Translations under genes and position numbers: made by a program | NCBI GenBank assembly: GCA_002722735.1 | Contig: PBMR01000017.1 | Coordinates: 1 to 64,000 of the forward strand | From: Methanobacteriota archaeon | GTDB lineage: Archaea > Thermoplasmatota > Poseidoniia > Poseidoniales > Thalassarchaeaceae | Direction: 5' to 3' | Length of the DNA stretch: 64,000 bases | Shown here: in pieces, positions 40,204 through 55,619 of the stretch | How positions within the stretch are numbered: position 1 is the stretch's first letter | How the letters are laid out: each line of letters begins with the position of its first letter | Notes under the pieces: model-generated | Told to the model about the DNA's origin: nothing | What the model saw: only the letters and a program-made list of their open reading frames with translations | Database searches by the model: none

Positions 40204-40467
40204 TCAGTTTCGGTCTATTCGGACCTTGCTGACGTTGGCCTTGTTGATCTTGTCAGGTAGCCATGCAGGGGCGTTGGCGCCCTTCGCTACCATCTTCTTC
40301 CAGCCCTTGAACACGTGAACGCGGTTGGTTCCCCTCTCTCTGAGGTGGATGTCCGTCTCACCACGAGATGCCGCCTTGAGGGCTGCGCCCCTCGGCTGCC
40401 TGCTGTGGAACACCTGTGCAGTGTCCTTTCCGTTCTTCATCAACACGAAGTATTTCTTGTCTCCCAT
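40204..40467 (-). CDS. Non-histone chromosomal protein MC1 family
   Basis: KYFVLMKNGKDTAQVFHSRQPRGAALKAASRGETDIHLRERGTNRVHVFKGWKKMV...APAWLPDKI matches the MC1 pattern. Confidence 0.88.
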   Translation of the reverse strand: MGDKKYFVLMKNGKDTAQVFHSRQPRGAALKAASRGETDIHLRERGTNRVHVFKGWKKMVAKGANAPAWLPDKINKANVSKVRIDRN

Positions 40468-40575
40468 ATTGGTTTGCCTCGGGGCACGCGAAACCTGACA
40501 GGTATTAAACTTGAGGGGGGATAATCGCAATACTGCGTCTATGATTGATAGTATTCCAATGGCCGATGGGCACAT

Positions 40576-40836
40576 TCAAAGTTCTGCGCACGCGAGTGTC
40601 TTGGTATTGGTAATGCCCTCGATGGGGCGTACAGAATCCACGACCAGTCGGGCTATCTCACCCATGCTCTCAGCCTCGATCTTGAGGATCATGTCGTGGT
40701 CGCCAAACAGAATTTGGGCATCAGAGACGAATGGCAAGGCTGATGCCTGCTCAAATACGCTGTACTCGGAGCCGGGCTCGACGTCAACCAGAACATAGCC
40801 TGCGGACATACTGGGACGCGGGAGGTTCGGGGGCAT
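40576..40836 (-). CDS. Stand-alone Lrp/AsnC ligand-binding (RAM) domain protein
   Basis: MSAGYVLVDVEPGSEYSVFEQASALPFVSDAQILFGDHDMILKIEAESMGEIARLVVDSVRPIEGITNTKTL; no HTH present. Confidence 0.75.
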   Translation of the reverse strand: MPPNLPRPSMSAGYVLVDVEPGSEYSVFEQASALPFVSDAQILFGDHDMILKIEAESMGEIARLVVDSVRPIEGITNTKTLACAEL

Positions 40837-40908
40837 GAAATCTTCCCCGCTTCGCGTAAATCGCCACCTACGATGAATACATATCGGATGGCTTCCCCTC
40901 GGGGTCGT

Positions 40909-41550
40909 ATGGCCGATGTGGTAATCGTCAGAGAGTGCCGGCATGGGCAGGTTCGCGTCCTATACGGCGATATCGTCAAGGTCGAGGGAGATGTTATGGT
41001 CATTCCAGCCAACAACAGGCTCGCTGGCAGGGAGGGGCTCGACGAGCGTATGCAACAAGCAGCCGGCCCGGGCCTGAGGGAGCACTGTGTCGGTATTGCA
41101 AAGGAGAAGAGGAAACTCAACCTACAGCCCTGCAGCGTGGGAGAGGCCGTCTCGACCCCTTCCTTCGACCTTCCAGCCTCCAACCTCGTGCACGTGGTTG
41201 GGCCCGATTGCCGGAGACCCACCCAGGACAACTTCCGCAGGGAGCTATTGAGGAACTCGTATGGGGCCCTGTTCGAAGAGGTCGAGGGACTCGAGCCGAG
41301 GGATACCCTCGTGCTGCCTCCCCTCGGAATGGACGTCTTTGCCTATCCACACAGGGAGGGTGCGAGAATGACCATGGAGATCATCCTCGCTTGGATGGAC
41401 AGCGAGGATGATCCGGGCGTCAAAATGGTGCTAATCGTAACTCACGAGGACAACTTCCTCAACAACATGAAGACAGTCTACAGGGAAAGCGAGGACCAGT
41501 TCCCCGGGGTTGACCGGACAAGGGATTACCGAAAGGGCAAGATTCAGTGA
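40909..41550 (+). CDS. Macro-domain-like protein
   Basis: VLYGDIVKVEGDVMVIPANNRLAGREGLDERMQQAAGPGLREHC; DTLVLPPLGMDVFAYP. Confidence 0.7.
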   Translation: MADVVIVRECRHGQVRVLYGDIVKVEGDVMVIPANNRLAGREGLDERMQQAAGPGLREHCVGIAKEKRKLNLQPCSVGEAVSTPSFDLPASNLVHVVGPDCRRPTQDNFRRELLRNSYGALFEEVEGLEPRDTLVLPPLGMDVFAYPHREGARMTMEIILAWMDSEDDPGVKMVLIVTHEDNFLNNMKTVYRESEDQFPGVDRTRDYRKGKIQ

Positions 41551-41594
41551 GCCTGCACCAATGTGCTCAATAACCCTGAGAACGGGATGCAACC

Positions 41595-42170
41595 GTGGGG
41601 AGCGCATACGAGCGAGAGTTGCGAGCCGTGCTCGCAGGCGAGCTGAAAGGGGTCAGGGCGATTACCAGGTCCTGCACCGAAGTTGAGCGGGCCAGGGCGA
41701 TGCGCGTCATCCAGAGGCCGTTTCTGGTTGTCAGGGCGCCGGGTAGTGGCTCCGAGGGCACCGGGGACCTTCTCGTGCTGCGAGGCGACATGTGCTTCCC
41801 GATAGAGGTCAAGTCATCGAAGAGCGACAAGATATACCTCTCTGGCAGAACGATGGAGCAGTACAAGGCACTGATTTCCACTGGTGAGAGGTGTGGACTG
41901 CTGCCGTTGTACGCCTTCAGGCTGAAGGGCGTGAGGGGGGATAGCTGGAGGGTGATGAGGGTCGATGTCGATGGTCTGACAGGAAAACTGAGGCACCTCT
42001 CGAGGAGCATCCCCCCCTTGCCCCTGACCAGCAGGGGCGTGCCTCATCTGAACTGGCACAAGGGGATGCCGGTGCATCGCTTCCTAGCGCTCGTGTGCAA
42101 GTCGGAAGGCGTGAAAGGCGTGTCGAGGTCAGAATCCGGCCTCTCGATCAGCGAGTCCGTCTCTGGCTAG
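41595..42170 (+). CDS. Holliday junction resolvase Hjc-like nuclease
   Basis: MGSAYERELRAVL...RAPGSGSEGTGDLLVLRGDMCFPIEVKSSKSDKIYLS; E-D-ExK nuclease core. Confidence 0.8.
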   Translation: MGSAYERELRAVLAGELKGVRAITRSCTEVERARAMRVIQRPFLVVRAPGSGSEGTGDLLVLRGDMCFPIEVKSSKSDKIYLSGRTMEQYKALISTGERCGLLPLYAFRLKGVRGDSWRVMRVDVDGLTGKLRHLSRSIPPLPLTSRGVPHLNWHKGMPVHRFLALVCKSEGVKGVSRSESGLSISESVSG

Positions 42171-42174
42171 GCCT

Positions 42175-42354
42175 CTACAGGCCGGAGAGTCTCTTCTCAA
42201 TCGCATCGAGCCTGGACTTGAGGGACTCAAGCCCCTCCCTGATGGTCGAGAGGTCGGATTGGTCGAGCAGTCTGCGAATGCTCTCACGCTCCCTTGCAAG
42301 CGAGTCCATGCGTCGGTTGAGGCTCCTATTGTCGGATAGCCCGCGCCCGGTCAC
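42175..42354 (-). CDS. Small coiled-coil protein (~59 aa, GTG start; not in ORF track)
   Basis: Manual translation: VTGRGLSDNRSLNRRMDSLARERESIRRLLDQSDLSTIREGLESLKSRLDAIEKRLSGL*; heptad-like pattern, fills the gap exactly. Confidence 0.6.
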   Translation of the reverse strand: MTGRGLSDNRSLNRRMDSLARERESIRRLLDQSDLSTIREGLESLKSRLDAIEKRLSGL

Positions 42355-42390
42355 GAGTGTCTGACTGGGTGTGGCGTATTCTCCCTTCCG

Positions 42391-43929
42391 ATGCTGAGGC
42401 TCAGGTTGAAGTGGAGTGGGTGGGCGTCCGAAAGCATGGGGAGGGAGGGACGAGGCAGGGTCAGCTTCCTACTGCCAATGCTCCTGCTGTACACGCTGTA
42501 CCTCCTTGGGGCGCCTCTCTTCCTATTAGTGCTAATCGGGGCTTGGTACGTCGCCTTGGTTACCTTGGAGTCGATGGGTTCGCTCGATCGCATGGATGCC
42601 ACGAGGCTGCTCGGAATCATCCTGATGCTCAGAACCGGCCGAGGCAGGAGGGTGCTGGACAGGGTCTCCAGCAATAGGAGGTTCTGGCGGGCCTACGGGG
42701 AGATATCGATCTGGCTGTGCTTCCTCGTGATGACCGGGGTCATCCTGCTCCTCTTCGTCAGCGCCATCGAGACCGCTCTGCGGCCTCCCGACGAGTACCT
42801 GCCTGCCGGCGACCTGCTGCTGATCCCCGGCGTCACCAGCTTCGTTCCCTTCTGGTGGCCCGCCCTGGCGCTGATCGTCGCCTTGGTCATCCACGAGTAC
42901 AGTCACGGGATCCAAGCAAGGGCCCACGGAATGAGGCTGAGGAGCTTCGGGCTTCTACTGGTTGGCCCCGTTCCGATCGGCGCTTTCGCAGAGCCCGAGG
43001 AGGCAGAGATGGCCAGGGCTCCCAGACGCGATAGGATGAGGCTATTCGCTGCTGGTCCTTCGATCAACATTTTCGCAACTTACGCTGCACTGATTCTCCT
43101 TTCTGCCGTTGCTAGCGGACTGGTCGCAGAGCACGATGGGGTCCATGCGAGGGGCATCGTGGAGGGAAGTGCTGCGGAGAGCGCGGGACTGATGCCCTAC
43201 GAGACCATCACCCACATCGATGGGTTTGGCTTCAGCGACTACGAGGGCTTCAGCGAGAGGATGTCCTCGCTCTCTGCTGGGGAAGTTGCCGTGTTCACGG
43301 TTCTCTCCCACCCAACAGAGCAGGGGGGCCGGGAGTCCAGAGCAATCGAAATCACCCTAGGGGACCGTTACGAGCACCTGTCCGCATTGTGCGAGGGGGA
43401 TGGCGATTGCATCGAGCGGAGCGGGGGGGCCGAGCCTGGCGATGCTTTCCTAGGCATCTCCAACGTTCGCCCTAGCACAGCCGGTGTTGATGGGTACTCC
43501 TACATCGTCAGTGGGGACTACTCGTTCGGTGTTACCGCCTTCGTAGCCCTGATCGAGCCGCTGATCATGCTCCAAACGCCAATTGCCCTAGATGGCCAGA
43601 CCATGGTGCTGGAGGAACGCGCCATGCTCGAATCCGGAGAAGGTCTGGTTGCATCGGCCGTGGGCACAGGCGGCATGCTGATGCTATTCGACTTCCTGTT
43701 CTGGCTGGTTTGGATCAACTTCCTGCTCGGCTTCGCCAATCTCATCCCGATGATTCCTTTCGATGGGGGTCACTTGGTCAGGGATGCGACGCACTCGGTC
43801 CTTGCCCGGATAGGCAGGGGCATGCATCCAATGCGCATAGAGGCGATTGCCAATCGGATAAGCAGCATGAGCAGCCTATTCATCCTCTTCATTCTAGCGA
43901 TCCCGGTCATCATCCCGAGGATCCTGTAG
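42391..43929 (+). CDS. Site-2 protease family (M50) membrane metalloprotease with PDZ-like region
   Basis: LVIHEYSHGIQARAHGM (HExxH); NLIPMIPFDGGHLVRD; polytopic. Confidence 0.85.
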   Translation: MLRLRLKWSGWASESMGREGRGRVSFLLPMLLLYTLYLLGAPLFLLVLIGAWYVALVTLESMGSLDRMDATRLLGIILMLRTGRGRRVLDRVSSNRRFWRAYGEISIWLCFLVMTGVILLLFVSAIETALRPPDEYLPAGDLLLIPGVTSFVPFWWPALALIVALVIHEYSHGIQARAHGMRLRSFGLLLVGPVPIGAFAEPEEAEMARAPRRDRMRLFAAGPSINIFATYAALILLSAVASGLVAEHDGVHARGIVEGSAAESAGLMPYETITHIDGFGFSDYEGFSERMSSLSAGEVAVFTVLSHPTEQGGRESRAIEITLGDRYEHLSALCEGDGDCIERSGGAEPGDAFLGISNVRPSTAGVDGYSYIVSGDYSFGVTAFVALIEPLIMLQTPIALDGQTMVLEERAMLESGEGLVASAVGTGGMLMLFDFLFWLVWINFLLGFANLIPMIPFDGGHLVRDATHSVLARIGRGMHPMRIEAIANRISSMSSLFILFILAIPVIIPRIL

Positions 43930-44625
43930 TCACTCTTCCTCGTCGATAACTCGTGGCTCGTGGACCTCGCGGAACACTACCTTGCCCACTCCCACATTCT
44001 CCCGCAGGGTTGTCACTAGGGAGAACTTGACGTAGGCCCAGTTCTGATCGTAGGCCATCTCCTCGGGCAGCGTCATGGTCAGATCGTCGCCGTCAAACTC
44101 CAGTTCGAAGTCCTCCCTGCCAGTATTCATCCTCATCAGGGTCTGGACCTTCTCCTCGCGATCCTCTACGAGTTTGACAATCCGGTAGACGTAGCGCAGG
44201 GTCACGCCCGCTAGAGGGTGGTTGTAGTCGATTCGCGCTCTCCCCGCGCTCATGAACTGCAGGATGCCAGTGCGCCCCCCAATCTCGACGGGCGCGCCTA
44301 TTGCCAGGGTGTTCGGGTCGCGGACGCTACGAAGCAGCACATTCTGGGAAATGGTCTCTATTTTATTGGCGTCACGCTCGCCGTAGGCCTGTTCGGGCTC
44401 AATCTCAAAATCGTACTCCTCATCGGCTTCGGCCTCTGACAGGTGAGCCTCGAAACCGGGGATGAGCAGGCCACCGCCAACGACGGTGATCATCGGCGAG
44501 TAGGTCCTGTTCTCCTCGTGGAGGTCGTGCTCCTTGGCAGTATCCTCCCTCGTGGTCTCGATCAGCTTCTCAGTGCCCGCATTGAACAGGTCGTAGTCGA
44601 TGTGCACTATTGAGCCGCTATCCAA
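43930..44625 (-). CDS. FKBP/SlyD-type peptidyl-prolyl isomerase
   Basis: VVGGGLLIPGFEAHLSEAEADEEYDFEIEPEQAYGERD; IDYNHPLAGVTLRYVYRI. Confidence 0.85.
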   Translation of the reverse strand: MDSGSIVHIDYDLFNAGTEKLIETTREDTAKEHDLHEENRTYSPMITVVGGGLLIPGFEAHLSEAEADEEYDFEIEPEQAYGERDANKIETISQNVLLRSVRDPNTLAIGAPVEIGGRTGILQFMSAGRARIDYNHPLAGVTLRYVYRIVKLVEDREEKVQTLMRMNTGREDFELEFDGDDLTMTLPEEMAYDQNWAYVKFSLVTTLRENVGVGKVVFREVHEPRVIDEEE

Positions 44626-44688
44626 TTGACCACCTCAAGCGGCCACGCGACCCGCTCCCCCTTTTTCATACAAACGGTGCGGTTGCCC

Positions 44689-44849
44689 TCAGGGCCTCTC
44701 CATTCTGGATCTGACAATGAGGACTAGAATGCCTAGTGCTACTGCTGCCAGAACCGCCAGAACCCCTGTGACGCCGCCCTCCTCCCACCTAGACGGGTCC
44801 GTGGATAGGCATCATCCGAGTCGTCGTGCCCGTCTTGATCTGAGTCCAT
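44689..44849 (-). pseudogene. Frameshifted small Asp-rich plus TM ORF downstream of ccmF
   Basis: Frame 1: MDSDQDGHDDSDDAYP; frame 2 continues TDPSRWEEGGVTGVLAVLAAVALGILVLIVRSRMERP*; one base missing at TATCC/ACGGAC. Confidence 0.6.
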
Positions 44850-44858
44850 TGAAATGGG

Positions 44859-47228
44859 TCATTCCTCGTTTTCGCAGCCCACTGGGCTGGCCGATGACAG
44901 GGGCAGCAGGCCGCCTAGCATGACGAGCGCCCACCCAGCCCAGACGAGGTGGCTGCCCGGGAGGTGGTGGACGGTGACCCGTACGCTATCGATATCGCTG
45001 GTCTGCCCCCTTATCATCGAGCTCAGCAGGTCGTTGGACTGGAACACGTCGAGGATCACAATCGTGTCGCCGGTCAGGCCGACCATCCTGTCGACCTCCG
45101 AGCGCGCCGAGACCGAGCCGCTGGGGGAGTCGAACCTGAGCATGCCGGGCATCAGGCCGGCTACCCTCTGGCCGTCCTCCCTGACCTCGATTGCGACCCC
45201 CAGGTACCCATCCCCTATCGAGTAGGGGTACGCGTCATCCTCCGCCGGGATGACCTCGACGTCGGTGAACACGAACTCGTAGCCGCGGTGCTCGATCGGC
45301 TGGTCCTTCTCCAGGGTGACCAGGTGCGAGGGGTCCGAGCGGTCCACCAAGGTGGTGGTCATGACGTGCCCGATGAGAAGCAGGAGGATGCCCAAGTGAG
45401 CGATGTGCGAGCCGAGCAGCCTTGCGCGCGCGGCGTTGCTCGGTGCCCTGAGCCCGTCACTCCTGAGTCTGGGCAGAGTCCTATTGGCAGTGCTCCAGAG
45501 ATGCTGGGCGGTTGAGGGCAGGGCGAACACCAGCCATGACAGCAGGAACAGGGACAGTGCGCCCCTGGTGATGCCTGAGGTCACATCGAGGTGGGGGTCC
45601 CCTGGCAGGTCGAATGACTCGGAGAGCGCGGCGAGCGCTATGGAAGCCGCCAATGCGGCTGCCACGAGGATCGAGCCGCGCCTAGCCGGGAGGGTCCTGC
45701 CCCAGGCGTACAGGGCAAGGCCGATGGCGAGAAGCCCGATCAGGGGCGCTCCGTAGAACTCGTGGGCGGCTAGGTTGGTGCCGTCGATCTCGACGGTGAG
45801 CAGGAGCCAGGTGAGCAGGAGGTAGGTCGCTCCGCCGTACCACGGCACGGCCCGGGCCAGCCTGGATCGCACAGACTCGTCGGTGAACGGGAGCGCGAAG
45901 GCGGAGAGGTCATCGTCGTCGTCGGAGATCAGCCAGACGGCTAGGAAGGGCGCCATCCCAGCGATCGCCTGCTGGATCTCGGCCACCCAGCCCCAACTAG
46001 CGAACAGCATCAGCATCACCCCCGCAGCCACCCAGTGAGTCGGGGGATCCTCAGCATCACCGGAGACCAATAGCAGCATGAGCGCCAAGCCAACTGTGAG
46101 GACCGCAGTCGAGCCGATCCACAGGCCGACGGCAGCGAAGGCAATCAGGAGGGCGGTCGCCATTCCCCGGTTCACCTCGAGCAGCGAGGCCCTCCCGCGC
46201 TCTGCGAGGCCCAGCGCCTGCTCCCTGTGGAGGTGCAGCACGGCGAAGCCACCGAGTAAGAGCAGAGATATCAGGTAGGTCGAAATCTCGATTCCCACGG
46301 GACTGAGATCTGCTATCTGGAGCACTCGGAGGTATGGATCCTGCGGCAGCGCGCCCCCGTCCTCGGCCACGAAGGCATGCACCGACGACCAGACCCCGTT
46401 CGCCCTGGTGACCAGGGTGGCGTGCAAGGCGAGGGCCCCGGCGATGAGGCCCATCGCGGGAGAGGCGGAGAAGGCGCTCTGGGAATCCGGCCTAGCGCGT
46501 GCGTGGACGATGACCAGCAGGGCGAGCCACGGAAGCAGGGATCCGGTCTCGACGGGGTCCCATGCCCAGTACCCTCCCCAATCCAGCACGGCGTAGGCCC
46601 ACAGACCCCCCAAGCCGATGCCGATTGTCCCGAACAGGAAGGCGGAGCGAGCCCAGTGCAACTGCGCTGCGTGGATATCCCTGGCCCTGTCGCTCCTCAG
46701 CACCCCGGCGAGGGCGATGCTGGCCGTCGCGAGGCACAATGCGTAGTAGACGAAGACTACGGGCGGGTGGATTACCATCAAGTCGGTTTGGAGCAGTGGG
46801 TTGAGCTCGCCGCGCTCTGCGCTCTCGGAGCCAGCGAAGGGCTCGAGCAGCAGGGACAGGGCGAGGAGGAGCGCGGTCCAGCCGTGCATCAGGCGGACTT
46901 CTAGGGGGATGGGGTCGGAATCGCCTGCCATGAGCCAGGTCACCACCGCCAGGATGGCAGCCCACATCAGCAGGGGCCCGGACCTGCTGCCCCAGACCGC
47001 CGAGATTCGATAGAGCAGGGGCAACCCGTCCCCTCCGTACCTCGAGACGAGGTCCAATGTCGTTGCCTCGATCAGGAAGGCGGCGACTAGTAGGGCGAAC
47101 GGGGCTGACTGGCAGGCCATTGTTACATAGCGGACCATCTGGTCGCCCCCCCTGTCGGGCCTCATGATCTGATGCAGGCTGGTCAGGACAGCGAGGACCA
47201 TCAGGGCCTGTCCGAGCAGCGAGAGCAA
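44859..47228 (-). CDS. ccmF: Cytochrome c-type biogenesis protein CcmF
   Basis: RISAVWGSRSGPLLMWAAILAVVTWL; LLQTDLMVIHPPVVFVYYALC; WAYAVLDWGGYWAWDPVETGSLLPWLALL. Confidence 0.93.
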   Translation of the reverse strand: MLSLLGQALMVLAVLTSLHQIMRPDRGGDQMVRYVTMACQSAPFALLVAAFLIEATTLDLVSRYGGDGLPLLYRISAVWGSRSGPLLMWAAILAVVTWLMAGDSDPIPLEVRLMHGWTALLLALSLLLEPFAGSESAERGELNPLLQTDLMVIHPPVVFVYYALCLATASIALAGVLRSDRARDIHAAQLHWARSAFLFGTIGIGLGGLWAYAVLDWGGYWAWDPVETGSLLPWLALLVIVHARARPDSQSAFSASPAMGLIAGALALHATLVTRANGVWSSVHAFVAEDGGALPQDPYLRVLQIADLSPVGIEISTYLISLLLLGGFAVLHLHREQALGLAERGRASLLEVNRGMATALLIAFAAVGLWIGSTAVLTVGLALMLLLVSGDAEDPPTHWVAAGVMLMLFASWGWVAEIQQAIAGMAPFLAVWLISDDDDDLSAFALPFTDESVRSRLARAVPWYGGATYLLLTWLLLTVEIDGTNLAAHEFYGAPLIGLLAIGLALYAWGRTLPARRGSILVAAALAASIALAALSESFDLPGDPHLDVTSGITRGALSLFLLSWLVFALPSTAQHLWSTANRTLPRLRSDGLRAPSNAARARLLGSHIAHLGILLLLIGHVMTTTLVDRSDPSHLVTLEKDQPIEHRGYEFVFTDVEVIPAEDDAYPYSIGDGYLGVAIEVREDGQRVAGLMPGMLRFDSPSGSVSARSEVDRMVGLTGDTIVILDVFQSNDLLSSMIRGQTSDIDSVRVTVHHLPGSHLVWAGWALVMLGGLLPLSSASPVGCENEE

Positions 47229-47232
47229 TACA

Positions 47233-48492
47233 TCACCATCCGTAGTGCTTCGCTCGGCTGTATCCGAAGGCCAGCATCGCCGGGACGATGCGCTTGAGAT
47301 AGAGCCCGGGCCTCCTGAGGAGGATCCTGAGGACGACCATCGCCTTCCCCGAGGCGCCCATGTCGGACATCTCGTCCGGGAGGCATCGGCCCATCAGTGA
47401 CATCTCCTCGTCAGTCAGGTCAAACAGCGCGTTCTTGCCCTTCAGAATCTTGCCATAGGGGGGGAACTCGTCCTTCCAGAGGCGGGGGTAGGCGGCCAGT
47501 CGGTCTGCGCTGAGATCGCCCTCCGCTATGGCGGCAGCAGCAGTCTGGGCTGCGTAGACCGCTGACTTCAGTGCGAGGTGAGAGCCGCCCTCGAAGAGGG
47601 GGGAGGTGAAGCCGGCGGCATCGCCCACCAGCATCAGCCCGTCGAAGTGGGTATTCTCGAAGGGCCCAGAAATCGGGATGGTCCCTCCGAAGGCCGGGTT
47701 GCCCTTCTCCTTCCAGGGGGGCCGGGTCTGCTCGAGCTCTCTGAAATGGGTTGACTCGATGAACTCGTCAAGAGCCTTCTTGGCACGCGGGCGGTCCTCG
47801 GTGACCAGTCCGACGTTGGCCCTGCCGTTGCACTTCGGTATCATCCAGAGGTATCCCCTCTCGGCGAACTTCGGCCATATGTAGAAGTCCAGATACCCAT
47901 CAGTCGGAACCCCGAGCATCTCGTACTGCATCCCGGCCACGACCTCGCCCGTGGTGTTCAGTGGTATTCCCTCACTGGGCTCAACAGCCTTCGAGCACAC
48001 TGCGGCGACGCCGGAGGCATCGATTACCACCTTGGCCTGAATCGGGAACTGCTCGCCCTTTCCATCGCACATCCATCCGTTGAATCGCGCATTCTCCACC
48101 CTCTCCATCAAGGATAGTTTGTGGCTGAGATGGCCTCTCGCTCCCGCCTCTGCCGCCTCATTGGCGATCCATCGCTCGAACAGGTGCTTCTCTAGGACGT
48201 AGCCCTGCTCGGTCAGGCGCTTCTGGGTGCCGTCCGGGAAGATGACGCGGATTCCGTGTACCCTCTTGCTGATGACGTGGTCGGGCAGGTCGAGGCCTAG
48301 GTTGTCGCAGGCAATCTCCGAGATGCACTCACCGCAGTGTACGGGAGTGCCGATCTCCGGGTGGTCCTCTATCAGAATCGTGTGGAGTCCCCTTCGGGCG
48401 CACTGCAGTGCGGCATTGCCGCCGCCCGGGCCCGCTCCGACGACTAGCACATCGCACGCCGTCACCCCACCTACCACGATTCGGCGGGTCAC
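47233..48492 (-). CDS. Geranylgeranyl reductase family flavoprotein
   Basis: CDVLVVGAGPGGGNAALQCARRGLHTILIED; PVHCGECIS; LMLVGDAAGFTSPLFEGGSHLALKSA. Confidence 0.88.
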   Translation of the reverse strand: MTRRIVVGGVTACDVLVVGAGPGGGNAALQCARRGLHTILIEDHPEIGTPVHCGECISEIACDNLGLDLPDHVISKRVHGIRVIFPDGTQKRLTEQGYVLEKHLFERWIANEAAEAGARGHLSHKLSLMERVENARFNGWMCDGKGEQFPIQAKVVIDASGVAAVCSKAVEPSEGIPLNTTGEVVAGMQYEMLGVPTDGYLDFYIWPKFAERGYLWMIPKCNGRANVGLVTEDRPRAKKALDEFIESTHFRELEQTRPPWKEKGNPAFGGTIPISGPFENTHFDGLMLVGDAAGFTSPLFEGGSHLALKSAVYAAQTAAAAIAEGDLSADRLAAYPRLWKDEFPPYGKILKGKNALFDLTDEEMSLMGRCLPDEMSDMGASGKAMVVLRILLRRPGLYLKRIVPAMLAFGYSRAKHYGW

Positions 48493-48572
48493 GACGACAT
48501 CAAAGAAACCCTCGGTTGCGCCACCTATGGTGGCGAGCGAACCTTCTCATTAGGGTAAGTCCCCCGCATGGT

Positions 48573-50441
48573 GTGGCATGGAAGGGACTCTCCCCCTACC
48601 TCAGGGCGCTCGAGGACAAGGGCGAGTTGCTGAGGGTGAGTCATCCCGTCGATGTCAGGTTCGAAGCGGGGTGCATCGCTGACCGCCTCGTGAAGCGTGG
48701 GGGGCCCGCAGTAGTGTTCGATCAACCCCGCCTCGAGGACGGCAGCATCAGTAGGTTCCCCCTAGTGATGAACCTCTACGGAACCAGAGAGCGCACCAAC
48801 ATGGCCCTCGGAGTCGAGCGCCCCCGCGAGATTGGCGAGCGCATGGTCAGGCTGATGAAACCGGACATCGGAAGCCTCGTGATGTATCCATGGAGGGGGC
48901 TCAATCTTCTGAGGGAAGCCATGTCGATGGCCCCGAAGAAGGTCTCGAAGGGGGCGTGCCAGCAAGTCAGGATCGAAGACCCGGATGTCACCCGTCTTCC
49001 GATTCCGACGACTTGGCCGTTTGACGGCGGGCCGTTCATGACCCTCCCCCTCGTTGTGACCTCCGACCCCCAGACCGGCGAACACAACATGGGGGTCTAC
49101 CGCAGTCAGGTCTACGGTCCCACCGAGGTCGGCTTGCACTGGCAGACCCACAAGCACGGAGCCGACCACGCCGATGCCTCGGACGGCAGGATGCCGGTCT
49201 CCATCTGCTTAGGTGGGCCCCCGGAGGTCATGTTCAGCGCAATCTCGCCACTGCCTGACAACCTGCCGGAGTACGAGTTCGCTGGGCTGCTGTCCCGCAG
49301 AAGCCTCAGGATTGCGAAGTGCCTGACCAACGACCTTTGGGTACCCGCCGAGTGCGACTTCGTCATTGAAGGCTACACCATGCCCAGTGAGACGCGTCTG
49401 GAGGGGCCCTTCGGGGACCACTTCGGTCACTACTCGCTGGAGAGGCAGTACCCAGTGATGCATGTCACCGCGATAACGCACAGGAAGGACCCCAGCATCC
49501 CGATGACGATAGTCGGGGTTCCCCCGATGGAGGATGGGTACATCGGTGAGGCGATCAGCGAGGCCCTCCTTCCAGTCCTCAGATTCCAGCACAGGGACGT
49601 CGCAGACCTCTTCCTGCCGCACGAGACCGGTTTCCACAACCTAGCGATACTCGCCTCCAAGCAGCGTTACCCGCGGCAGGCACGCAAGACCGCCCTAGGC
49701 CTCCTTGGCGCGGGGCAGATGATGTTCCAGAAGGTCATCGTGGCAGTCGACGAGGATCACCCAGTCAGGGATCTCGAGGCTCTTCTGGACGCTTTGGATA
49801 CCAAGGTCAGGGTACCCGATGGCTTGGTCTTCCTCGAAGGCATGGTCGCAGACACGCTTGCGCACGCAGCCCCTTGGGAGAACGTCCACACGAAGCTGCT
49901 CATCGATGCCACGACCCCCGCCTCCGGTGACCCGCAGGGCGAGGTGGAGCAACTCAAGGCCAGCGACTCGCTTGCGATCTCAGCATCGGCCATAGACGGA
50001 ATCGAGCAAGCCAGGATGCTGCGGCCGTCGATGATGGTGGTGACGACCAACATCCGGGGTGGGCCGAAGCCCGAGGAGAGCATGGAGGAGCCGGACGAGT
50101 TCCTCGCCGCTCAGCAGCGCCAGCGGATTGCCTCGGTATGCGACATCATCTGGGGTCTGGAAGGGGCGAGGGGGCTGCGCTGGCTATTCATCACCGACGC
50201 TGATGCCGATCTGGATAGCGAGAACTGGCGCAGGCGTCTGCTTTGGCAACTCTTCTGCCGCTTCGACGTGGGACGGGACCTGCACTTCGATGAGGGCAAT
50301 CGAAGGGTTGCTTGGGACGCGACTGCGCCCATCCCCTCCAACGACGGCCCGCTTCCAGTTCGCCGTTGGCCCGCAGTCACCCTGCACGACCCCGAACTGG
50401 TACAGAGGGTCGATCACTGGTTGGCCGAGGTGGGCTACTGA
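48573..50441 (+). CDS. ubiD: UbiD-family decarboxylase
   Basis: Start taken as GTG (VAWKGLSPYLRALEDKGELLRV); QVRIEDPDVTRLPIPTTWPFDGGPFMTLPLVVTSDP; ETRLEGPFGDHFGHYS. Confidence 0.88.
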   Translation: MAWKGLSPYLRALEDKGELLRVSHPVDVRFEAGCIADRLVKRGGPAVVFDQPRLEDGSISRFPLVMNLYGTRERTNMALGVERPREIGERMVRLMKPDIGSLVMYPWRGLNLLREAMSMAPKKVSKGACQQVRIEDPDVTRLPIPTTWPFDGGPFMTLPLVVTSDPQTGEHNMGVYRSQVYGPTEVGLHWQTHKHGADHADASDGRMPVSICLGGPPEVMFSAISPLPDNLPEYEFAGLLSRRSLRIAKCLTNDLWVPAECDFVIEGYTMPSETRLEGPFGDHFGHYSLERQYPVMHVTAITHRKDPSIPMTIVGVPPMEDGYIGEAISEALLPVLRFQHRDVADLFLPHETGFHNLAILASKQRYPRQARKTALGLLGAGQMMFQKVIVAVDEDHPVRDLEALLDALDTKVRVPDGLVFLEGMVADTLAHAAPWENVHTKLLIDATTPASGDPQGEVEQLKASDSLAISASAIDGIEQARMLRPSMMVVTTNIRGGPKPEESMEEPDEFLAAQQRQRIASVCDIIWGLEGARGLRWLFITDADADLDSENWRRRLLWQLFCRFDVGRDLHFDEGNRRVAWDATAPIPSNDGPLPVRRWPAVTLHDPELVQRVDHWLAEVGY

Positions 50442-51397
50442 TGGGAGCCAAGGAGATCCTTGAGTTCGTGAGGGTGGAGCACACGCTGTTCTCGCTTCCC
50501 TTCGTGCTGATTGGCTACGTGCTGGCAGACAAGGAATTCGGGTCCGAGAGCATGGACCTCGTCTTGATTATCATCGCAGCTATCGGTGCTAGGGGCCTTG
50601 CGATGGCTCTGAACAGGATTGTCGATCGAGACATTGACGGAGAGAATCCGCGTACTGCTGCGAGGCATCTACCATCCGGGACCATGTCGGTGCAGGCCGC
50701 TTGGATTCTCGCTGGAGCATTTCTGGGAATGCTTCTGTTCGCTGCATGGAGATTGAACGAGGTCGCTCTGAAGATGGCTTGGCTGCCGGTTCTGGCCTTC
50801 GTAATCTACCCGTACACCAAGAGGGTGTCTTGGATCTGCCACTTCTGGATAGGGCTGTGCCTAGCACTCGCCCCGGCAGGGGCATGGGTCGCCATAGCCG
50901 CGGACACCCATGGCTGGGCTGCAATCACTGGAATGCTGGATGGGCGGACAGGTTTTCTGTGGTATCCCGAGCTATTCTTCATCTCGTTCGGAGTGGCGCT
51001 TTGGATCACCGCGTTCGACATCAATTACGCCCTGATGGACGAGGATGTCGATCGCGAGCAGGGGATTCGCTCCTTCCCGGCGATACACGGCCAAGTGGCT
51101 ACCATGTGGCTGAGTGTGGCTCTGACCATAGGCTGGTTTGCTTGCTTCGTGCTGACGGGACTGCATGACTTCACGGGCACACGTAGCTTCCGCTCCTCGC
51201 TCTGGGTCCCGTCTGTGGTGCTGATGGCGCTTGTCAACGTCTTCGTGATGACAAAGGGGGCGCAGGCTGCAGCGAGGTCTGACGAGGCGATGGGGGGCTA
51301 TCAGAAGGCCCTCTTCCGAGCTTCCATGCTCACTGGATGGGTTTTGTTATCTAGTCTCATGATCGTAGAGCATTACAACGATGGGATGCTGGATTGA
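50441..51397 (+). CDS. ubiA: UbiA-family prenyltransferase
   Basis: LAMALNRIVDRDIDGENPRTAARHLPSG; second DxxxD (DINYALMDEDVDREQGIRSFPAIHG); polytopic; TGATG overlap with ubiD. Confidence 0.9.
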   Translation: MGAKEILEFVRVEHTLFSLPFVLIGYVLADKEFGSESMDLVLIIIAAIGARGLAMALNRIVDRDIDGENPRTAARHLPSGTMSVQAAWILAGAFLGMLLFAAWRLNEVALKMAWLPVLAFVIYPYTKRVSWICHFWIGLCLALAPAGAWVAIAADTHGWAAITGMLDGRTGFLWYPELFFISFGVALWITAFDINYALMDEDVDREQGIRSFPAIHGQVATMWLSVALTIGWFACFVLTGLHDFTGTRSFRSSLWVPSVVLMALVNVFVMTKGAQAAARSDEAMGGYQKALFRASMLTGWVLLSSLMIVEHYNDGMLD

Positions 51398-51406
51398 GGT
51401 TATACG

Positions 51407-53683
<2,277 letters not shown>

Positions 53684-53708
53684 AGGCAAATGAGCACCGC
53701 GAGTAGCC

Positions 53709-54698
53709 ATGGCCGACTACTCGCGGGATGACTTCGACCTCCCTGTCGAGGATTACGACTTCTCGGCTGCTGGTGACGTGAGTTCTCTGATCGATCAGAT
53801 GGGACGCGCGGGTGGTTTCACGGCAACCAAGCTCGCTCGTGCTCGCGACATCCTGCGCGAGGCAATCGACAAGGTCGACCAGGACGGTGTGCTCAACTGG
53901 ATCTCCTTCCCAGCATGCCTGTGTGCCACCGGCACGCGTGGCTTCTTCATCGAGGCGCTCAAGCGCAAGGCGTTCAACGTGGTAATCACGACCTGCGGCA
54001 CCCTCGACCACGACATCGCCCGTACTTACCGCGATTACTTCCATGGCGATTTCGACCTCGATGACGTCGCCTTGGGAGAGGAGGGGCTCAACCGATTGGG
54101 CAATGTCGTCATCCCCAACGACTGCTACGGCGAGATACTAGAGCAGGTTGTGCTCCCATGGTTGGAGGAAATAGAAGCGGGGCGCTCTACTGCATCTGGT
54201 ACGAACCCTTGGCTGGGCTTCGGCTCAGTGGAGCTCTGCTGGGCCATGGGGGATCGGATCGAGGACGAGTCTTCTCTACTCCACTGGATTGCCAAGCACC
54301 GAATCCCGATGGTCGTCCCAGGCCTGACCGACGGATCGGTCGGGTCTCAGTTGTTCATGCACAGGCAGAGGAATCCCAATTTCATGGTTGATGTCTTAGC
54401 GGACGAACAGGTGCTTTCCGACCTGACTTGGACTGCCAAGGAGAGCCATGGACTGATGGTTGGGGGCGGAATCTCGAAGCATCACGTGATTTGGTGGAAC
54501 CAGTTCAGAGGGGGGATGGACTCAGCGGTCTCGATCACCACTGCTGCCGAACACGACGGCTCCCTGTCAGGGGCACGCCTTCGCGAGGCGGTATCGTGGG
54601 GGAAAATCCGCCCCCAAGCACCTCAAGTCGTGGTCGAGGGAGAGGCCAGCGTCCTCCTCCCCCTACTGGGTGCGGATCTGTTCAATCATGCTGACTGA
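53709..54698 (+). CDS. dys: Deoxyhypusine synthase
   Basis: VITTCGTLDHDIARTY; GGGISKHHVIWWNQFRGGMDSAVSITTA. Confidence 0.95.
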   Translation: MADYSRDDFDLPVEDYDFSAAGDVSSLIDQMGRAGGFTATKLARARDILREAIDKVDQDGVLNWISFPACLCATGTRGFFIEALKRKAFNVVITTCGTLDHDIARTYRDYFHGDFDLDDVALGEEGLNRLGNVVIPNDCYGEILEQVVLPWLEEIEAGRSTASGTNPWLGFGSVELCWAMGDRIEDESSLLHWIAKHRIPMVVPGLTDGSVGSQLFMHRQRNPNFMVDVLADEQVLSDLTWTAKESHGLMVGGGISKHHVIWWNQFRGGMDSAVSITTAAEHDGSLSGARLREAVSWGKIRPQAPQVVVEGEASVLLPLLGADLFNHAD

Positions 54699-54750
54699 GT
54701 GGAAGAATTCCGGGGTAACGGCTAATAACGGACCTCATCTCGGCGGGCTC

Positions 54751-54933
54751 ATGTCAGTGAAGGACATGGTACAGAACATGATTAACGAGCTAACGGATGC
54801 CCTCGGCGATGCAGAGAAGCACGATGGCGGCAACAGCGCTGCCGGAACACGCGTGCGAAAGGTAATGCAAGCGGCCAAGGGAGCGGCCCAAGACGTCCGC
54901 GTCAAGGTTCAGGGTGACAAGAACACCCGCTGA
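54751..54933 (+). CDS. Hc1 (histone H1-like) family small basic protein
   Basis: MSVKDMVQNMINELTDALGDAEKHDGGNSAAGTRVRKVMQAAKGAAQDVRVKVQGDKNTR resembles the Hc1 N-terminal pattern (GNKAAxxRVR...). Confidence 0.6.
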   Translation: MSVKDMVQNMINELTDALGDAEKHDGGNSAAGTRVRKVMQAAKGAAQDVRVKVQGDKNTR

Positions 54934-54938
54934 TTGCA

Positions 54939-55619
54939 TCATTCGCTGCTTAGAGCTATCAGCTCCATCAGAGCTGTGCGCATCGGCACTATTGGATGCC
55001 ATCCGTCGCCACCCGCTTCGATGATTGCCTCGTGCAATGGTCCTAGGTCTGGTCTGTGAGAGGGGTTTGGGGCACCCTCTCGGACTGGGCTAGGAACGCC
55101 AGCGAGCGACTCCACAGTGTGAGAGTGGTGAACGGCGTTGAGATAGCGCTGCCACAGAAGCCCAATCTCGTCGATCACGTCCTTGTCCGCCCACGCCCTC
55201 CTACCACACACATCGATAGTGCCGTTGGCAGTCATCCCTCCCTCTTCCATAATCAGTATGGTCATAGCGTCGACGACATCCCTGACGTGGACCCAGTAAC
55301 TCGCTTTGGTATCACCGTGATGCTCTTCGGCCTCTTCCCGCTTGATCCCCTCGACCCAATCTCTGAGTATTTCCGTCCCCCACCCCCTGCCATCTGAGGG
55401 GAGGATCAGATCGTGTACGCGCACTACCAGCTTGGCATCCCCGTGAGGTGCATTACGGGGAATGATGACGATATCTCCGCTCGCGCCCCCTCCCAAGCCA
55501 ATTGTGACATCAGCCTCCCCTCTATCCTCAGCGAAGTCGGCGCCTGCACGTTGCAGACGATCTATGAGGGCATCTCGGAACCCGTCATCGACTCCGTCGA
55601 TGTGGATGACCCTGGGCAT
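54939..55619 (-). CDS. Degenerate NAD-epimerase/SDR-like protein
   Basis: VIHIDGVDDGFRDALIDRLQRAGAD...YWVHVRDVVDAMTILI...GTIDVCG; GxxGxxG and YxxxK not evident. Confidence 0.5.
   Translation of the reverse strand: MPRVIHIDGVDDGFRDALIDRLQRAGADFAEDRGEADVTIGLGGGASGDIVIIPRNAPHGDAKLVVRVHDLILPSDGRGWGTEILRDWVEGIKREEAEEHHGDTKASYWVHVRDVVDAMTILIMEEGGMTANGTIDVCGRRAWADKDVIDEIGLLWQRYLNAVHHSHTVESLAGVPSPVREGAPNPSHRPDLGPLHEAIIEAGGDGWHPIVPMRTALMELIALSSE

What the first reader, a model, noticed from the sequence alone, without database searches (positions are those of the whole stretch)
54751..54933. Hc1 (bacterial histone H1-like) protein encoded in an archaeal-looking genome beside deoxyhypusine synthase
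The 60-aa protein has the Hc1 pattern: acidic helix, then GNSAAGTRVRKVMQAAKGAAQDVR, close to the GNKAAxxRVR core remembered from chlamydial-type Hc1. The same window encodes MC1 (40204-40467), so this cell may combine two unrelated nucleoid proteins. Hc1 is best known from bacteria; archaeal occurrence would be notable.
Basis: partly seen in the sequence, partly recalled or inferred. Interest (0 to 1): 0.65.

Follow-up and report, generated by a model that had tools for sequence, protein, structure and literature searches.

The report
Tailless bacterial-type Hc1 in marine archaea
A tiny protein of the bacterial Hc1 'histone H1-like' family is really encoded in this ocean archaeon and in most of its order (Poseidoniales, Marine Group II), whose genomes have no true histones, so it is a strong candidate for a second DNA-organising protein beside MC1, although it lacks the tail with which the chlamydial protein binds DNA and nobody appears to have tested it.

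Summary
Confirmed and extended. The 60-aa ORF at 54751-54933 scores 53.4 bits against Pfam Hc1 (cut-off 23.5). A bacteria-only Hc1 model scores archaeal copies 45-60 bits and 4,900 shuffles of them at most 11.7, so composition does not explain the match. It is not a stray or contaminant gene: single-copy Hc1 occurs in 113 of 146 genomes of the window's order (Poseidoniales/Marine Group II, including a one-contig genome), in none of the roughly 260 other genomes sampled from its phylum, and the archaeal copies form one clade (97/100). Most Poseidoniales also carry MC1 but no histone or HU; Alba is missing from nearly all of the window's family. A promoter-like element lies at a fixed distance from the hc1 ATG even where neighbouring genes differ, so deoxyhypusine synthase is only a neighbour. 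Correction: the protein matches only the N-terminal (dimerisation) domain of chlamydial Hc1 and lacks its Lys-rich DNA-binding tail (net charge +2). The model is a confident two-helix hairpin with one conserved basic face. Best reading: an order-wide, once-acquired, tailless Hc1 acting as a dimeric DNA-associated protein. Homology is near-certain; DNA binding is inferred (about 0.6).

The parts
54751..54933 (+). hc1 gene: 60-aa tailless Hc1-family protein
   Evidence: PF07432 53.4 bits; start conserved in homologues
54829..54870 (+). Hc1 core GNSAAGTRVRKVMQ (residues 27-40): turn and start of helix 2
   Evidence: alignment A1; model helices 3-25 and 29-59
54716..54729 (+). promoter-like element TAACGGCTAATAAC, 22-35 bases upstream of the ATG
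   Evidence: TA-rich element at fixed distance in 53 of 59 archaeal loci, 2.5% of control windows
53709..54698 (+). deoxyhypusine synthase, conserved upstream neighbour in the window's family only
   Evidence: PF01916; synteny
40204..40467 (-). MC1 chromosomal protein, the other recognised nucleoid protein of this genome
   Evidence: PF05854 88 bits; start chosen at the internal ATG 40467

Best explanation
This is a true, tailless member of the bacterial Hc1 family, acquired once by an ancestor of Poseidoniales (from bacteria or marine phages) and since inherited vertically, with loss in several genera. It most likely works as a small helical-hairpin protein that pairs into dimers, as reported for the matching domain of chlamydial Hc1. 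It would present the conserved basic stripe of helix 2 (T33, R36, K37, Q40, K43, Q47, R50) to nucleic acid, bridging or locally stiffening DNA as an accessory nucleoid protein beside MC1 in cells without histones. Shown here: family membership, distribution, clade, predicted fold, missing tail, promoter-like element. Inferred: dimerisation of this protein, DNA binding, abundance and architectural role.
For: PF07432 match; shuffle test; 113/146 genomes of the order, none in the rest of the phylum sample; MC1 in 132/146, histones and HU essentially absent, Alba absent from nearly all of the window's family; archaeal clade 97/100; hairpin pLDDT 97 with a conserved basic/polar stripe; own promoter-like element, in line with the report that archaeal NAPs are usually single-gene operons (PMC7613761); viral relatives lie beside SSB, UvsX, DNA methyltransferase and DnaB genes.
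Against: The domain corresponds to the N-terminal dimerisation part of chlamydial Hc1, whereas DNA binding was assigned to the Lys-rich C-terminus (PMC2848022), which is missing here. Net charge is only +2, and several bacterial and viral relatives are neutral or acidic. No expression, abundance or binding data exist here. Several genera of the order lack the gene.
Confidence: 0.6

Rival explanations
1. The tailless Hc1 domain is a protein-protein adaptor (a small dimerising hairpin) that works with the DNA replication, recombination or repair machinery, for example at single-stranded DNA, and does not coat or compact the chromosome.
For: 28 of 32 viral contigs carry hc1 in a short locus with a gp32-like SSB, often with UvsX, DNA methyltransferase and DnaB; the archaeal gene neighbours UvrB-DHS in one family and a FEN1-like ORF in the other; low net charge; the matching chlamydial domain is the dimerisation part.
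Against: The conserved stripe on helix 2 is basic; the archaeal gene is not in a shared operon with repair genes and has its own promoter-like element.
Confidence: 0.27
2. The protein binds RNA or ribosomes and acts on translation rather than on the chromosome.
For: Chlamydial Hc1 binds RNA and represses translation in vitro (title cited in PMC3469542); weak helical-hairpin resemblance to ribosomal L29-type chains; neighbour DHS is a translation-linked gene.
Against: Fold matches are insignificant (E above 2, generic hairpins); DHS linkage is confined to one family; viral neighbours are DNA genes.
Confidence: 0.09
3. The resemblance is an artefact of composition, or the gene is bacterial contamination of the bin.
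For: The protein is short and Ala/Lys/Arg-containing, and most genomes are metagenome bins.
Against: Shuffles reach at most 11.7 bits; conserved synteny with archaeal DHS; 113/146 genomes including a one-contig genome that also encodes MC1 (G015) and genomes whose titles look like single-cell isolates; archaeal clade.
Confidence: 0.01

Closest known systems
Short bacterial Hc1 / 'histone H1' proteins of Planctomycetota, Rhodothermota and Bacteroidota (PF07432)
   Same: Same length (about 55-76 aa), same AAGTRVRKxMQxxKxxAQxxR core, 35-62% identity
   Different: Archaeal host; separate clade; somewhat more basic (median pI 9.3 versus 7.9); own archaeal-type promoter-like element
Chlamydial Hc1/HctA
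   Same: The N-terminal domain aligns with HctA model positions 1-36
   Different: No Lys-rich C-terminal DNA-binding domain; far below the HctA cut-off (21.3 versus 100 bits); no developmental cycle
Hc1 of marine viral contigs and of jumbo 'moraphages' (PMC12619734)
   Same: Same tailless domain, 45-62% identity
   Different: Placed beside SSB, UvsX and DNA methyltransferase genes; often neutral or acidic
MC1 and HTa, nucleoid proteins gained by histone-less Diaforarchaea
   Same: Laterally acquired small proteins in the same histone-less archaeal clade (PMC7613761); Hc1 co-occurs with MC1
   Different: Unrelated folds; those are recognised DNA binders, Hc1 here is untested

Membership tests
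Hc1 family (Pfam PF07432) | Profile score over the curated cut-off along the whole domain | tested here: met
   53.4 bits versus 23.5, positions 2-56 of 57
Hc1 family (Pfam PF07432) | Similarity beyond amino-acid composition | tested here: met
   44.9-60.3 bits versus at most 11.7 for shuffles
Hc1 family (Pfam PF07432) | Two-helix hairpin fold | tested here: inconclusive
   Confident hairpin model, but no solved Hc1 structure exists to compare with
Chlamydial Hc1 (HctA) | HctA equivalog model score over the cut-off | tested here: not met
   21.3 versus 100 bits, positions 1-36 of 121
Chlamydial Hc1 (HctA) | Lys-rich C-terminal DNA-binding tail | tested here: not met
   ORF ends after the domain; all archaeal copies 58-60 aa; tail function as stated in PMC2848022
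Archaeal nucleoid-associated protein | Binds DNA with low sequence specificity | not testable with these tools
   Only a predicted basic face
Archaeal nucleoid-associated protein | High abundance in the cell or nucleoid fraction | not tested
   No proteome was searched
Archaeal nucleoid-associated protein | Small and basic, usually a single-gene operon (PMC7613761) | tested here: met
   60 aa, pI 9.3; own promoter-like element; net charge is however only +2

The most novel reading that the evidence does not exclude
The ancestor of Poseidoniales, in a lineage that had lost histones and Alba, rebuilt its chromatin from two laterally acquired proteins, MC1 and a tailless Hc1, the latter possibly carried by marine phages. 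The Hc1 hairpin domain itself would then be a previously unrecognised DNA-binding or DNA-bridging fold that needs no Lys-rich tail, and a major chromatin component of some of the most abundant archaea of the surface ocean.
Probability: 0.3. Interest if true: 0.75.

Novelty: new member of a known kind. Interest (0 to 1): 0.5.

Why it matters
How histone-less archaea organise DNA is an open question, and the clade around Thermoplasmatales and Marine Group II has been called a hotbed of nucleoid-protein gain and loss (PMC7613761). That 2022 survey names MC1 for Marine Group II, and its main text does not mention Hc1. An order-wide, single-copy, conserved Hc1 gives a specific, easily expressed 60-aa candidate to test. 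It also draws attention to tailless Hc1 proteins as a group: shared by archaea, planctomycetes, Bacteroidota and marine phages, yet without a solved structure and lacking the part to which DNA binding was assigned.

Tried and rejected
Composition or chance match: rejected by shuffles. Contamination: rejected by distribution, synteny and a one-contig genome. Functional link with deoxyhypusine synthase: not supported, since the second family has hc1 at another locus and a promoter-like element sits between the two genes. Longer 87-aa ORF from GTG 54670: rejected because homologues start at the ATG equivalent to 54751. Missed divergent copies in negative genera: a profile search found only non-significant fragments (best E 0.13). 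Fold search in PDB: uninformative, best E 2.8. Sequence search of PDB: no relative.

Full report
What is there. The ORF at 54751-54933 (+) encodes the 60-aa protein described. It matches Pfam PF07432 (Hc1) with 53.4 bits over positions 2-56 of 57, cut-off 23.5. An HMM built only from 33 bacterial relatives scores 49 distinct archaeal copies at 44.9-60.3 bits, while 4,900 shuffles of the same sequences reach at most 11.7. dN/dS is about 0.04-0.28 in the pairs where it could be computed.

Which organism. The nearest relative (L002, 88% identical Hc1, with UvrB and DHS 92-93% identical) is a Candidatus Thalassarchaeaceae genome; the other close hits are mostly labelled Poseidoniales, Marine Group II or Euryarchaeota. 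The window's genome is 1.40 Mb, 80% complete.

Distribution. PF07432 occurs in 113 of 146 genomes of the order, nearly always in one copy: by my count from that table 69 of 74 in the window's family (f1) and 44 of 72 in the other (f2), where it is confined to genera g12, g13, g17 and g20. In the phylum sample of 390 genomes all 98 positives belong to these two families; comparing handles, about 260 of the 390 lie outside the order. A profile search of the 33 order members without a match gave only insignificant fragments. Copies in genera g6 and g8 are divergent (26-40 bits), and G203's copy has an in-frame TGA.

Other nucleoid proteins. MC1 (PF05854) is in 132 of 146 genomes; 104 have both MC1 and Hc1 (my count). 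Histone-fold PF00808 has one hit over the cut-off in 60 genomes, a partial match inside a 279-aa frame. HU/HTa PF00216 has none in 60. DUF1931 PF09123 has one in 30, inside a 645-aa frame. Alba has 23 of 60: most sampled f2 genomes and genus g6 of f1, not the window's genome or the rest of its family. Thus in most of the window's family Hc1 and MC1 are the only recognised candidates among the families searched. The distribution of MC1 and the loss of histones and Alba at the root of the Diaforarchaea agree with PMC7613761, whose main text does not mention Hc1. Other NAP types (e.g. Cren7, Sul7, CC1) were not searched.

Gene neighbourhood. In nearly all f1 loci the order is UvrB - deoxyhypusine synthase - hc1, followed by a convergent, poorly conserved 226-aa ORF. 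In f2 loci hc1 lies elsewhere: in L087 and L089 a CoA-transferase-like ORF follows it and a FEN1-like ORF lies beyond (named from the sequence by eye, not from a family search). A TA-rich element begins 27-29 bases upstream of the ATG in 53 of 59 archaeal loci against 2.5% of control windows (the loci are not independent). This spacing suits an archaeal TATA box with a leaderless transcript (inference) and argues that hc1 is transcribed on its own.

Origin. In a tree of 104 Hc1 sequences the 47 archaeal ones form one side of a branch with 97/100 support, on the same side as marine viral and Rhodothermota copies rather than Planctomycetota. With only 60 columns and an outgroup gathered by peptide patterns from this query, the donor cannot be named; a single acquisition before the two families split, with later losses, is the simplest account.

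Structure. The model is a two-helix hairpin (residues 3-25 and 29-59), mean pLDDT 97, pTM 0.76. On helix 2 the hydrophobic residues (A31, V35, V38, A42, A45, V49, V53) face one side, and the conserved polar ones (T33, R36, K37, Q40, K43, Q47, R50) lie within about 140 degrees on the other. The invariance of TRVRKVMQ in bacterial and viral rows is partly due to the search patterns, but HMM-found archaeal copies and two Bacteroidota proteins annotated 'histone H1' keep most of it. No family member is in the PDB by sequence, and fold matches there are insignificant; in the viral library the closest matches are viral proteins with 33-49% identity.

What it is not. In chlamydial Hc1 the conserved N-terminus mediates dimerisation and the Lys-rich C-terminus binds DNA (PMC2848022). 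The window protein aligns with positions 1-36 of the 121-position HctA model at 21.3 bits against a cut-off of 100 and ends after the domain. It is an Hc1-family protein, not an HctA orthologue, and the biochemistry of chlamydial Hc1 cannot simply be transferred.

How it may work. A dimer of hairpins with two basic faces could bridge or clamp DNA; that is inference. Support for a DNA-linked role comes from 28 of 32 viral contigs, where hc1 shares a short locus with a gp32-like SSB gene and often UvsX, a DNA methyltransferase or DnaB. That context fits the adaptor/recombination rival equally well, hence a confidence of 0.6 for the nucleoid reading.

Verdict. Observation confirmed; interpretation supported with corrections. 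A known family in an apparently unreported archaeal setting (within the open-access literature searched), of moderate interest.

Noticed in passing
L104-L109, L111-L117, L119-L126, L128-L134 (viral contigs): Viral hc1 genes form a conserved island with a T4 gp32-like SSB and, in many contigs, DNA methyltransferase, UvsX and DnaB (28 of 32 contigs have the SSB).
   Followed up: partly
L006 (contig NZKZ01000004.1): Titled Acidiferrobacter sp. IN47, but its UvrB, DHS and Hc1 are 80-85% identical to the window's and syntenic: mislabelled or misbinned Poseidoniales.
   Followed up: partly
window 54939-55619 (-): A 226-aa ORF convergent with hc1, kept at this place across the family at only about 24-50% identity (70% in the nearest relative), with only a sub-threshold Epimerase match.
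   Followed up: no
window 40204-54933: MC1 and hc1 lie about 14.3 kb apart on one contig in most genomes of the window's genus (e.g. G061, G194, G325, G358, G404).
   Followed up: no
genomes G112, G203, G274, G395 (genus g6): Genus g6 has divergent Hc1 (26-31 bits; G203 with an in-frame TGA), and its two members searched for Alba have it, unlike the rest of their family: possible replacement. But genus g15 has neither Hc1 nor Alba in the genomes searched, only MC1, so there is no strict exchange.
   Followed up: no
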